Positions 8,635 to 12,414 of a stretch of 64,000 nt of DNA are shown in pieces (position 1 is the stretch's first letter; every line of letters starts with the position of its first letter). The stretch is from the NCBI GenBank assembly GCA_005862225.1, contig SZXV01000009.1:124001-188000 (forward strand). The letters run 5' to 3'. Both the position numbers and the translations under genes were made by a program. The notes under the pieces were generated by a model. That model saw only the letters and a program-made list of their open reading frames with translations. It did not search any database and had not been told where the DNA came from. Origin of the DNA: Chlorobium sp. (GTDB taxonomy: Bacteria > Bacteroidota > Chlorobiia > Chlorobiales > Chlorobiaceae).

Positions 8635-8638
8635 TTAG
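8634..8638 (+). repeat. left copy of ATTAG direct repeat flanking the IS
   Basis: ATTAG at 8634-8638 recurs at 9946-9950 just outside the other end of the IS. With symmetrical element ends the duplicated target is ATTA (8634-8637 and 9946-9949), a 4-bp duplication as is usual for IS5-family elements. Its first base is the last base of the bchF stop codon. Confidence 0.5.
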
Positions 8639-9945
8639 GACACCTCTATTTATTCTTGAAGACTATATCTATTAATAATAAAACATTTTACATTTTATCA
8701 ACAAGCTATAAAATAGTATATTAAGAGTGATAAAATCCATTTATAGCTTTGCTGTATGAAAAACATCAATCCATTAGGTCTTTTTGACGAACATTTGCTT
8801 CTTGAGAAGCTCTCGAAACTCAAGGATCCGTTAGTCAAACTGGAAGCGCATATTGATTGGAACATTTTCAAACCTATTCTTGACGAAACGTTGAACAAAC
8901 CAAAAATCAGTCATGCTGGTCGCCCACTGTTTGATCATATCATGATGTTCAAAATTCTTATCTTGCAGAGCCTTTACAACCTCTCTGATGATCAAATGGA
9001 ATATCAGATTCTTGATCGGCGAAGCTTTATGCGTTTTCTTGGCTTGAAAATCAGTGATAAAGTTCCAGACAGCAAAACCATATGGAAATTCCGAGAAACC
9101 CTTATCGATGAAGGTGTTATCGAAGCTGTCTTTTATCGTTTCAATGCCATGCTTGATCAACACAACCTTTTTGCTCAAACCGGTCAAATCGTTGATGCAA
9201 GTTTTGTGGAAGCACCACGTCAACTCAACAGTCGTAAAAAAAACAGCTTGATCAAAGCAGGCAAAACTCCAGAAGCATGGAAAGAAAATCCACACAAGCT
9301 GCGTCAGAAAGATATTGATGCCCGTTGGGTCAAGAAAAACAATATCAGTTTTTACGGTTACAAGAATCACATCAAGCTCGATCAAAGCACCAAACTTATT
9401 CCCACGTATGCTGTTACTGATGCGGTAGACCACGATTCCGTTGCTCTTGAAACCTTGCTTGAAATGAGTGATGGTGGTCAAATCTTGTACGGTGATAGTG
9501 CGTATGTTGGTCAGGAAAAGATCATTGATGAGTGTCACATGACCAGTAAAATTCATGAAAAAGGATATTGGAACAAACCCTTAACTGACGAGCAGAAAGC
9601 ATCAAACCGTGAAAAATCAAAAATCAGAGCACGGGTTGAACATGCCTTTGGTTTTATGACCAACAGTATAGATGCGATGTTTGTCAAGACCATCGGTATT
9701 TGGCGGGCGGCTGCTAAAATTGGCATGACCAACCTCACCTACAACATGATGCGCTGTGTGCAGTTGAAAAAGAAAATTTATACCCTCTAATTTTCTCAGG
9801 GGGGTAACTACGTCCAAAAGGTACTGATCGCTCTCTTTTACACAAAAAACATGTCAAAGAACAATAATTTTCTGGATTGTCAATGATCTCTTGGTTTTGC
9901 CTCAGATCAAATTAATATTTCAAAAGTCAATTTTTAGAGGCTCCC
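8638..9945 (+). mobile_element. IS5-family insertion sequence
   Basis: An element of about 1.3 kb carries one full transposase gene. The proposed ends are GGACACCTCTA (8638-8648) and the complement of the right end, GGGAGCCTCTA (9945-9935), which agree at 8 of 11 bases including CCTCTA. They are flanked by a short direct repeat (ATTA, extended to ATTAG). The inverted repeats are short and imperfect, so the exact ends are tentative, but the transposase is certain. It sits between bchF and the AT-rich three-gene cassette. Confidence 0.65.
8756..9790 (+). CDS. IS5-family DDE transposase
   Basis: The 344-residue protein is collinear with IS5-subgroup transposases. GRPLFDHIMMFKILILQ and YNLSDDQMEYQILDR form the N-terminal part, PDSKTIWKFRE precedes the catalytic core, the first Asp is in IVDASFVEAP, the second in YGDSAYVG and the Glu in IRARVEHAFG, followed by KTIGIWRAAAK. 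The reading frame is unbroken and full length, so the element may still be active. The enzyme cuts and joins the ends of the IS at short targets. Start ATG 8756 is the first in frame after the left end. A 241-codon open frame on the opposite strand is a shadow. Confidence 0.93.
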   Translation: MKNINPLGLFDEHLLLEKLSKLKDPLVKLEAHIDWNIFKPILDETLNKPKISHAGRPLFDHIMMFKILILQSLYNLSDDQMEYQILDRRSFMRFLGLKISDKVPDSKTIWKFRETLIDEGVIEAVFYRFNAMLDQHNLFAQTGQIVDASFVEAPRQLNSRKKNSLIKAGKTPEAWKENPHKLRQKDIDARWVKKNNISFYGYKNHIKLDQSTKLIPTYAVTDAVDHDSVALETLLEMSDGGQILYGDSAYVGQEKIIDECHMTSKIHEKGYWNKPLTDEQKASNREKSKIRARVEHAFGFMTNSIDAMFVKTIGIWRAAAKIGMTNLTYNMMRCVQLKKKIYTL

Positions 9946-10116
9946 ATTAGTTAGAAGTGTATTGTTGTCACCTTTATCATTTTATAAATTGTATGCCCAT
10001 ATACACCTTATGTATATTCTGAATCTTTGATTGCGGAAATTGCATATCGTCGCATCTTTTTATCTTGCTCTTGCAAAACGTAATTTATTGGTGGTGTGAT
10101 TTTTGGGGAGAAAAAT
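9791..10116. promoter_or_regulatory. IS right end and leader of the three-gene cassette
   Basis: No gene is seen in these 326 bases. The first 155 belong to the IS right end. The rest is AT-rich and contains a perfect inverted repeat, ATATACA (9999-10005), 5-nt spacer, TGTATAT (10011-10017), about 100 bp before the first cassette gene; this could be an operator. GGGGAG at 10105-10110 is a strong ribosome-binding site for ATG 10117. No clear -35/-10 pair was fixed. Confidence 0.4.
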
Positions 10117-11010
10117 ATGTGTACAGAAAATGAAAAACTATCGTTAATTATTAGTCGAGAAGATGTTTTCTCCTCTAGATATTTTGATTATCAAAAATCA
10201 GATAAATATATCTATTACAACAAACATAATGAACAAATAGAAGTTGGAGTTTATACCCATTATTTAAGCGCTACTAGTACGGATATTGCAATCGATTTAT
10301 CCACAATGATTGGTTGCCCAATGAAATGCTTATTCTGTCAATCTGCAAGTGTTAATTATGAAAGGAATTTAAGTTCTGATGAAATAGCGGTAATAGCAAA
10401 AAGAATTATAAAGAACCATATACATAAAAACACAAAGCAAATAACTTGTAGTTTACAAGGAATAGGCGAACCTAGTTTAATACCAGAAACAGTGATTGAT
10501 TTGTATCAACAACTAATTAATTATGATAAACGAGTAAAATATAGTATTTCAACGATTGGGGCAAGCATTGACGGACTAAATAAAATTATCAATTCAGGAA
10601 TAAAAATAGATAATTTGCAAATCACAAAATGCGGAACCACAAATATCGTTGAAAAAGAATTGACTCCTAACGGAATAAGTATTGCAAAATTATCTGAGTT
10701 AATTAAAGAAATTATAAAACGACACAATATAAAAAAAGCAAAACTTAACTATATTTTGATAAAAGGCAAGACTGACAGCAAAGAAGATTTACAAAATTTA
10801 ATAGCCATATTCAAAAATAGGGGTATTGCCATAAAAATCTCATATTTAAATGAAACAGAATGTTCTACTAAATATGGACTATTACCAACGAGTTATAATG
10901 AAGCAATTTTATTTTCTTCAGAGTTACAAGAAAACGGCATAGATAGCTATGTTTTTGGTTCTTTTAAAAACATAGCCATAAGTTGTGGTCAATTATTAAC
11001 TAAAAAATAA
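10117..11010 (+). CDS. RlmN/Cfr-like radical SAM protein, shortened and atypical
   Basis: From ATG 10117 (GGGGAG six bases upstream) the protein has 297 residues; the frame extends to GTG 10096 but the later start is better. The radical SAM cluster motif CxxxCxxC is Cys67, Cys71, Cys74 (GCPMKCLFC). Further RlmN/Cfr traits are LQGIGEPSL, LNYILIKGKTDSKEDL and the C-terminal ISCGQL, whose Cys290 matches the methyl-carrying cysteine of RlmN. Two differences stand out. It lacks most of the N-terminal accessory domain of RlmN (about 380 residues). The second RlmN catalytic cysteine, seven residues before the cluster motif, is Asp60. RlmN and Cfr methylate adenosine in 23S rRNA (RlmN also tRNA); here the substrate is unknown. 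It is AT-rich, unlike the bch genes around it, and first of a tight operon. Confidence 0.8.
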   Translation: MCTENEKLSLIISREDVFSSRYFDYQKSDKYIYYNKHNEQIEVGVYTHYLSATSTDIAIDLSTMIGCPMKCLFCQSASVNYERNLSSDEIAVIAKRIIKNHIHKNTKQITCSLQGIGEPSLIPETVIDLYQQLINYDKRVKYSISTIGASIDGLNKIINSGIKIDNLQITKCGTTNIVEKELTPNGISIAKLSELIKEIIKRHNIKKAKLNYILIKGKTDSKEDLQNLIAIFKNRGIAIKISYLNETECSTKYGLLPTSYNEAILFSSELQENGIDSYVFGSFKNIAISCGQLLTKK

Positions 11011-11016
11011 GTTAAC

Positions 11017-11757
11017 ATGGATCAAAAAACATTTGAGTACAAAAATTTAATTTTGTTTGTCGCTCTTGCTCTGTTTCTTTCTTTAGTTGGTGCATTTTAC
11101 CTCTATCCCGATATATTACTCTTATGTAATAATATTATTTTTAACTTAGGTATGTCTATGTTTGGTACTTTATTTGGGTTGCTTCTCTTTTTTAATCCTA
11201 AAAAATCGAATTACTTTTCATTTATCAAACCAAATCATGAATTAGATAAACAATACTGGATAGAATTTATTCATGGAATAGATGAAGACCCAAAAACCGT
11301 TTGGTTTGTCGGTGATAAAAGCTATAAATGGATAGATCCGAAAGACAAATACTTTGAGACTGTAAATAAGAAAATAATATCAAGATTAACACAAAAAGAT
11401 TTAAATAGCGATAAAGATGGATGGTGTATACATATCATTGTGTCGGATATTGATAGTGCTAATAAATGGAAAAAGCTAATAGAGGAAATGGAAACAATTA
11501 ATAAAAGCATAAAGAATAAAAGAGTTAAAATCGGCTTATTAACTTCTGGAAAGATAAAATATTCAATTGTCGCTTATCATAAAAAAATGGTAATAGTGAC
11601 CTTTATGAGTAATGGACATATTGATAACAGTCCAACTTTTGAAATAAATAGAGAAAATTTAGTTTATAAAGCATATTTGAATGATTTAGACACCATATAT
11701 GGAGATGAAAAAATTACATGGCTGTTAAATTATGAGAAAAATATTATCATTGAATAA
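11017..11757 (+). CDS. two-helix membrane protein with soluble C-terminal domain, unknown
   Basis: I do not recognise a named family. The 246-residue protein has two N-terminal membrane helices (about residues 10-30 and 35-58) and then about 185 soluble residues. The soluble part contains TVWFVGDKSYKWIDP, a coiled segment rich in Lys/Glu and a strand-rich end, VKIGLLTSGKIKYSIVAYHKK, then MSNGHIDNSPTFEINREN. The order strand, HKK, strand, then Phe-rich end faintly recalls degenerate phospholipase-D-like domains of signalling and defence proteins, but the HxKxxxxD motif is not intact, so this is only a suggestion. It starts 6 bp after the radical SAM gene and ends 2 bp before the SLOG gene, with the same AT-rich codon use. 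It could be the membrane effector of the cassette. Confidence 0.55.
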   Translation: MDQKTFEYKNLILFVALALFLSLVGAFYLYPDILLLCNNIIFNLGMSMFGTLFGLLLFFNPKKSNYFSFIKPNHELDKQYWIEFIHGIDEDPKTVWFVGDKSYKWIDPKDKYFETVNKKIISRLTQKDLNSDKDGWCIHIIVSDIDSANKWKKLIEEMETINKSIKNKRVKIGLLTSGKIKYSIVAYHKKMVIVTFMSNGHIDNSPTFEINRENLVYKAYLNDLDTIYGDEKITWLLNYEKNIIIE

Positions 11758-11759
11758 AA

Positions 11760-12365
11760 ATGACTTCACTTAAGATAGGCATATTTGGGCATGAAAAATC
11801 AAATACTACTTCAACGGTATTTGAGTCAGCCACAAAAATTGGGCAACTTATAGCCATAAATGGCCATACTCTTTACAATGGTGGTGGAGCAGGGGTAATG
11901 TTATCAGCAAGGCAAGGAGCATTTAGTGAACACGGAAGTATTGTTTCAATTAATCCAGATCAAGCTATAGAAGATATTCATAACAATATGCTTGGCAATA
12001 TTGTTATGACAGGGCAAAATAAAATTGGTCGGGTGCCAATTTTGTGCCAAACAATTGATATTGGCTTTGCGTTAAGTGGAGGGGCTGGCACATTATTAGA
12101 AATAATAACCTGCTATTTATTAGCAAAGCCTATTATTGTTATTGATTTCAACAACTTTTCTGCTAGTAGCAGAGTGAATCAGTTTTTTTATAAAACAAAT
12201 ACAATTGCTTTAAACGGAAAAAACTTTGAGATAGGTTACTTAGATGATAAGGATTCCAAGTATGTCTCTCCCATACTTATTCTTAATATTGAAATTGGAA
12301 TCGAAAATATATTTTCATTAGGAATTGAATATTATAAAAATATTACGGGAGACAAATGTCTATAA
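11760..12365 (+). CDS. LOG/SLOG-family Rossmann nucleotide-binding protein
   Basis: The 201-residue protein starts 2 bp after the preceding stop. It has the hallmarks of the lysine-decarboxylase-like/LOG (SLOG) fold: an opening KIGIFG strand, the phosphate-binding YNGGGAGVMLSA loop (residues 38-48) and LSGGAGTLLEI (residues 104-114), which corresponds to the PGGxGTxxE motif with Ser in place of Pro. Enzymes of this fold cleave nucleoside monophosphate glycosidic bonds (cytokinin activation) or bind nucleotide-derived ligands; SLOG domains are recurrent sensors in predicted bacterial conflict systems. Coupling to a membrane protein and a radical SAM enzyme on an AT-rich inserted segment makes a sensor or hydrolase role in such a system plausible but unproven. 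It ends 49 bp before bchC. Confidence 0.72.
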   Translation: MTSLKIGIFGHEKSNTTSTVFESATKIGQLIAINGHTLYNGGGAGVMLSARQGAFSEHGSIVSINPDQAIEDIHNNMLGNIVMTGQNKIGRVPILCQTIDIGFALSGGAGTLLEIITCYLLAKPIIVIDFNNFSASSRVNQFFYKTNTIALNGKNFEIGYLDDKDSKYVSPILILNIEIGIENIFSLGIEYYKNITGDKCL

Positions 12366-12414
12366 AATTCTTTCGAGAAAAATATCATTTAGCATTTAAA
12401 TGAATCTACAGTGC

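What the first reader, a model, noticed from the sequence alone, without database searches (positions are those of the whole stretch)
10117..11010. RlmN/Cfr-like enzyme missing one of the two catalytic cysteines and the N-terminal domain
Seen: cluster Cys67/71/74 and C-terminal Cys290 are kept, while the position seven residues before the cluster motif, Cys118 in E. coli RlmN, is Asp60. The N-terminal accessory domain is largely absent. Known: in RlmN, Cys355 forms a covalent RNA intermediate and Cys118 is needed to resolve it. Inference: either a different residue resolves the intermediate, or the substrate or chemistry differs (for example a small nucleotide or a stable adduct).
Basis: partly seen in the sequence, partly recalled or inferred. 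Interest (0 to 1): 0.7.

Follow-up and report, generated by a model that had tools for sequence, protein, structure and literature searches.

The report
RlmN-like enzyme with aspartate replacing cysteine
In a green sulfur bacterium, a recently acquired three-gene insert carries a distant relative of the RNA-methylating enzymes RlmN and Cfr in which one of the two essential catalytic cysteines is an aspartate, so it may run a variant of their unusual chemistry, possibly as part of a defence-like system.

Summary
The ORF at 10117-11010 is an RlmN/Cfr-fold radical SAM protein: top ten fold matches are RlmN, cluster cysteines C67/C71/C74 kept, C290 kept in the CGQL motif. Asp60 lies gap-free at the RlmN C118/Cfr C105 position. 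No cysteine lies between residues 2 and 67, so a simple shift is excluded. The helical N-terminal domain is missing, but its beta extension is kept. Further residues invariant in 78 relatives are also changed (His to C172, Arg to E179).

It is not RlmN or Cfr: it scores far below both models and forms its own long branch. The genome has a normal RlmN. Only one other member was found (84% identical, also D60), in the same three-gene cassette: radical SAM, two-TM protein, SLOG protein. The cassette is AT-rich, under purifying selection, sits between a 157-aa gene and bchC in two Chlorobium genomes, and is absent there in 28 relatives.

Recent literature makes C118/C105 a general base, so Asp60 could do that job directly; this is inference. 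Unexpectedly, a viral clade has Gly here and carries the second catalytic cysteine on a separate small ORF, so loss of C118 is not unique. Verdict: new variant of a known kind; function untested.

The parts
10117..11010 (+). Radical SAM protein of RlmN/Cfr fold, 297 aa: D60 at the Cys118 position, C67/C71/C74 cluster, C290 in CGQL, C172 and E179 in place of otherwise invariant His and Arg
11017..11757 (+). Two-transmembrane-helix protein with a soluble C-terminal region, 246 aa; no Pfam, NCBIfam or PADLOC match
   Evidence: 87% identical ortholog in the other cassette
11760..12365 (+). SLOG-fold protein (LDcluster4, PF18306, 80.5 bits, cut-off 26.3), 201 aa, with the GGxGTxxE motif of LOG-like proteins
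9945..10116 (+). AT-rich leader of the cassette, alignable with the leader of the second cassette (L011); approximate left end
12366..12414 (+). Right end of the cassette; GCATTTAAATGAATC shared with the second cassette just upstream of bchC; the empty-site homology resumes at the bchC ATG (12415)
8756..9790 (+). IS5-family transposase inserted between the 157-aa gene and the cassette; absent from the other cassette, so not part of it

Best explanation
It is a divergent class-A-type radical SAM enzyme (RlmN/Cfr fold) in a mobile three-gene cassette. Most likely C290 is methylated by one SAM, a 5'-deoxyadenosyl radical from a second SAM makes a C290-S-CH2 radical, this adds to a base of a nucleic acid or nucleotide, and Asp60, sitting where RlmN and Cfr place their catalytic base, removes the proton so that the adduct breaks down to a methylated product. 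The product or its absence is probably read within the cassette by the SLOG protein and the two-TM protein, in the manner of nucleotide-signal conflict systems. Shown: fold (predicted), residues, alignment position, cassette, patchy lateral presence, purifying selection. Inferred: every chemical step, the base role of Asp60, the substrate, and the link to defence.
For: Fold: AlphaFold model pLDDT 85, pTM 0.84; ten best PDB matches are RlmN-type (TM 0.70-0.76). Cluster, GEP motif, R83-N84-L85 and CGQL kept. The Cys at this place in Cfr points at C8 (about 3.0 A when modelled) and is described as the proton acceptor (PMC13001441); the review PMC9692996 prefers the general-base role over a disulfide. 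Several RNA-contacting residues named for Cfr have like residues by the alignment (S153-S112, S187-S143, N208-N166, K250-K207, F330-F283); some of these pairings depend on the alignment. Cassette: same three genes in the same order in L011; G+C 27-33% against 48% for flanking genes; dN/dS 0.16, 0.17, 0.23; site empty in 28 relatives. SLOG domains and two-TM SLATT effectors as parts of nucleotide-signal conflict systems are an established prediction (PMC7159879).
Against: No activity data. A carboxylate is usually a weaker base than a thiolate and cannot form the transient S-S species discussed for RlmN. S103, N288 and R327 of Cfr, which touch the target adenosine, are not kept by alignment, and the invariant His and Arg of SLHxxxxxxR are Cys and Glu, so the substrate or even the reaction may differ. 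Only two members, 84% identical, are known; defence is inferred from context only, and PADLOC gives no convincing match.
Confidence: 0.4

Rival explanations
1. Adduct trap: without the thiol the C290-S-CH2-base crosslink is not resolved, so the protein becomes stably attached to its nucleic acid or nucleotide target (a suicide or tagging enzyme).
For: C118A/C105A (and C105S) variants of RlmN and Cfr accumulate exactly this crosslink (PMC13001441, PMC9692996). A single-use enzyme would fit a defence-type cassette.
Against: Asp is a potential base, unlike Ala or Ser. Known trapped variants are laboratory mutants; no natural example was found in the papers searched.
Confidence: 0.17
2. Relocated thiol: C172 replaces an otherwise invariant His at the end of strand beta-4 and has the parity of the side chains that face the active site (N166, Q168, T170), so it could take over the role of C118.
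For: His in 78 of 78 relatives, Cys in both members; residues 166-171 are a strand in the model.
Against: Cfr N208 and T210 on this strand contact the 3' neighbour nucleotide rather than the target base, and no coordinates were available to measure distances. Of the other extra cysteines, C111 lies between two residues aligned with RNA-facing serines, so it probably faces away; C249 could not be placed.
Confidence: 0.15
3. Different chemistry on a small nucleotide, which the SLOG protein then binds or hydrolyses and the two-TM protein senses; C290 serves as a radical relay rather than a methyl carrier.
For: Loss of the RNA-binding HhH2 domain, changes at several otherwise invariant residues, SLOG partner, nucleotide-using viperins among the weaker fold matches.
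Against: The CGQL loop and cluster context are those of class A methylases, and short viral relatives lacking HhH2 keep both cysteines, so loss of HhH2 does not show a small substrate.
Confidence: 0.2
4. Degenerate or inactive RlmN copy.
For: Very long branch (3-4 changes per site).
Against: dN/dS 0.16 between orthologs, intact operon, D60/C172/E179 kept in both; the genome has its own normal rlmN.
Confidence: 0.05

Closest known systems
RlmN (TIGR00048; PDB 3RFA, 5HR6, 5HR7)
   Same: Fold, CX3CX2C cluster, GEP motif, CGQL with the methyl-carrying Cys
   Different: No HhH2 domain; Asp instead of Cys118; Cys and Glu instead of invariant His and Arg; 57.9 bits against a cut-off of 290; 16-19% identity in the fold alignment
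Cfr (TIGR04432; PDB 9P0P)
   Same: As for RlmN; several RNA-contacting positions alike by alignment
   Different: 51.9 bits against a cut-off of 550; Cys105 is Asp60; Ser103, Asn288, Arg327 not kept by alignment
Short viral RlmN-like proteins (this work, e.g. Aeromonas phage Ahp1 AHP1_741)
   Same: No HhH2 domain; Q168, N211, S242 shared
   Different: Both catalytic cysteines kept; about 21-26% identity
Gly118 viral clade with a separate Cys-bearing ORF (this work, e.g. Moorella phage MTATph1, Kehishuvirus tikkala)
   Same: Cys118 absent; K240, S242, N245 shared
   Different: Gly instead of Asp; CGQL on a separate ORF; invariant His and Arg kept
SLOG/SLATT-type nucleotide-signal conflict systems (predicted; PMC7159879 and references there)
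   Same: SLOG protein next to a two-TM protein, patchy lateral occurrence
   Different: The two-TM protein has no SLATT match; an RlmN-like partner was not found described

Membership tests
RlmN | Score over the TIGR00048 cut-off (290 bits) | tested here: not met
   57.9 bits
RlmN | Two catalytic cysteines (C118 and C355) | tested here: not met
   C355 equivalent C290 present, C118 equivalent is D60
RlmN | N-terminal HhH2 RNA-binding domain | tested here: not met
   Model begins with beta strands, no helical domain
RlmN | Falls inside the RlmN/Cfr clade | tested here: not met
   The 12 RlmN/Cfr rows form a clade without it (99/96); its sister group is unresolved, the AU test rejects neither viral clade
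RlmN | Makes m2A in 23S rRNA or tRNA | not testable with these tools
   needs an enzyme assay
Cfr | Score over the TIGR04432 cut-off (550 bits) | tested here: not met
   51.9 bits
Class A radical SAM methylase (RlmN/Cfr type), by mechanism | Radical SAM barrel with CX3CX2C and closest fold RlmN | tested here: met
   PF04055 36.7 bits over 29.5; fold search
Class A radical SAM methylase (RlmN/Cfr type), by mechanism | Methyl-accepting Cys in a C-terminal CGQL loop | tested here: met
   C290-G-Q-L present; methylation itself not tested
Class A radical SAM methylase (RlmN/Cfr type), by mechanism | Second conserved Cys as base or resolver | tested here: not met
   D60
SLOG LDcluster4 (PF18306), for the third gene | Score over the gathering cut-off | tested here: met
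   80.5 bits against 26.3
SLATT effector, for the second gene | Match to a Pfam SLATT profile | tested here: not met
   No Pfam match even at E 10; two TM helices only by a poor model and by reading
Known anti-phage defence system | Match to PADLOC models | tested here: not met
   Only PsyrA at E 0.006, through the SLOG protein

The most novel reading that the evidence does not exclude
A class A radical SAM methylase that uses a carboxylate (Asp60) instead of the second cysteine, acting on a nucleotide or nucleic acid inside a previously undescribed SLOG plus two-TM signalling or defence cassette.
Probability: 0.3. Interest if true: 0.75.

Novelty: new variant of a known kind. Interest (0 to 1): 0.58.

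Why it matters
Whether the second cysteine of RlmN and Cfr acts as a general base or through a sulfur-sulfur species was argued for years. A natural enzyme with Asp in exactly that place, and a viral clade with Gly there, are ready-made tests: an active Asp enzyme cannot use a disulfide at that position. If the cassette is a defence or signalling unit, it would add an RlmN-type radical enzyme to such systems. If instead it traps adducts, it would be a natural counterpart of the C118A crosslink known only from mutants.

Tried and rejected
Shifted cysteine: rejected, none between residues 2 and 67. Pseudogene: rejected by dN/dS. IS5 transposase as part of the unit: rejected, absent from the second cassette. 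Placing the protein by tree: sister group unresolved (AU p 0.44 with the Gly118 clade, 0.24 with the short clade; already beside RlmN/Cfr at only 83/64). SLOG gene used as bait: only distant LOG-like proteins. Two-TM protein: model poor (pLDDT 40), so not fold-searched; an HxK motif (H188-x-K190) after paired strands hints at a phospholipase-D-like half domain, but no profile supports it.

Full report
What was checked. The ORF at 10117-11010 on the + strand gives 297 aa. It matches Pfam Radical_SAM above the cut-off (36.7 bits) and the RlmN and Cfr models with good E-values (8e-16, 7e-14) but far under their cut-offs (57.9 against 290, 51.9 against 550). phmmer against the PDB finds only Cfr and RlmN and places D60 on RlmN C118/Cfr C105 with no gap between it and the cluster motif. 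Cysteines are at 2, 67, 71, 74, 111, 172, 249 and 290, so no cysteine has slid into place.

Structure. An AlphaFold model built on an alignment of 43 relatives has pLDDT 85 and pTM 0.84; the loop with C290 is of low confidence. The ten best PDB matches are RlmN-type chains, including the C118A-tRNA crosslink structures (TM 0.70-0.76, 16-19% identity). Three N-terminal strands correspond, by position, to the beta'1-3 extension described for Cfr (PMC13001441); the helical HhH2 domain is missing.

How far Asp60 is specific. Among 80 sequences the column is Cys in all 12 RlmN/Cfr and all 39 short viral proteins, Gly in all 27 of another viral clade, and Asp only in this protein and its ortholog. 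Both members also change Ser170 to Thr, His172 to Cys and Arg179 to Glu, each invariant in the other 78. A DNA pattern search for Asp plus cluster motif in 395 Bacteroidota genomes found just these two loci and one low-complexity stretch, with no hit for the reversed control pattern.

Relations. In trees of 80 and 39 sequences the pair is a very long separate branch (4.1 and 3.1 changes per site); RlmN/Cfr, the short viral clade and the Gly118 clade are each supported without it, and its sister group is not resolved. It shares Q168, N211 and S242 with both viral groups and K240 and N245 with the Gly118 clade. Absence of the N-terminal domain is common among viral relatives that keep both cysteines, so it does not by itself point to another chemistry.

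Surroundings. The gene is the first of three closely packed genes: radical SAM, a two-TM protein (11017-11757) without known relatives, and a SLOG LDcluster4 protein (11760-12365). The only other copy found, in an uncultured Chlorobiaceae genome (L003 and L011, the same locus), has the same three genes at the same place. In 28 further genomes of the genus the 157-aa gene lies directly before bchC, including one whose bchC is 99% identical (L131), where a spacer of about 29 bases stands in place of the insert. The cassette has 27-33% G+C against 48% for its neighbours. dN/dS is 0.16, 0.17 and 0.23 for the three genes, and their dS (0.23-0.48) is lower than that of the flanking genes (0.71, 1.09), which suggests transfer of the cassette between these lineages after they split (a simple NG86 estimate). 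The IS5 element in the window is a separate insertion. The genome also has a canonical rlmN with Cys.

Mechanism. In RlmN and Cfr one cysteine is methylated and becomes a methylene radical that attacks the adenine; the second cysteine is now described as the base that removes the C2 or C8 proton so that the crosslink falls apart, and Ala or Ser there traps the crosslink (PMC13001441, PMC9692996). In Cfr the side chain at this place points at C8. An aspartate there is therefore most simply read as a replacement base. This is inference. The rivals are an unresolved adduct, a relocated thiol at C172, or a different reaction on a small nucleotide. Residues that contact the target nucleotide in Cfr are partly kept and partly changed (alignment with the contacts listed; some of these pairings are alignment-dependent), so the substrate is probably not A2503.

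Role. A SLOG protein beside a two-TM protein recalls systems in which a nucleotide signal drives a membrane effector (PMC7159879). No PADLOC model matches convincingly. Defence is a reasonable guess from context, not shown.

Verdict. A real and well-supported divergence from RlmN/Cfr, a new variant of a known kind, with a clear bench test. Its weight is limited by having only two known members.

Noticed in passing
L008:3818-4780; L021-L029; L061-L109 in part; L163:1483-2405; L166:1183-2263: A viral clade of short RlmN-like radical SAM proteins (27 in the tree, 99/99 support), all with Gly at the Cys118 position. The barrel ORF ends before the C-terminal Cys, and in at least 17 loci a separate ORF of about 40 aa directly downstream carries ...AACGQL, in frame 0, +1 or +2 relative to the barrel, so the enzyme appears split with its methyl-carrier Cys in trans. 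Seen in isolates: Moorella phage MTATph1 and the crAss-like Kehishuvirus tikkala.
   Followed up: partly
L166:1982-2263: In Vibrio phage D479 the small Cys-bearing ORF holds two tandem copies of EAGFDAGLAIATDAEV(N/D)AGAACGQMAIL, as if the carrier peptide had been duplicated.
   Followed up: partly
L164:2082-2360; L165:2081-2353: Pectobacterium phage Wc4 and Yersinia phage P778 carry the Gly118 type barrel but the next ORF has no CGQL; the partner may lie elsewhere or be missing.
   Followed up: no
L014, L034-L108 in part: A separate clade of 38 short viral RlmN-like proteins lacks the HhH2 domain yet keeps both catalytic cysteines, often with a second Cys right after the C118 position (CCST).
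   Followed up: no
11017-11757: The two-TM protein has a weak phospholipase-D-like look (paired strands, then H188-x-K190 at YHKKMVIV), unsupported by any profile.
   Followed up: partly
8635-9944: IS5-family element between the 157-aa gene and the cassette, absent from the second cassette; TTAG is seen on both sides of it.
   Followed up: partly
L011:10133-12484: In the relative with the second cassette a large ORF on the opposite strand follows bchX; it looks like a DUF499-type ATPase (from reading only) and is not at this place in the window.
   Followed up: no
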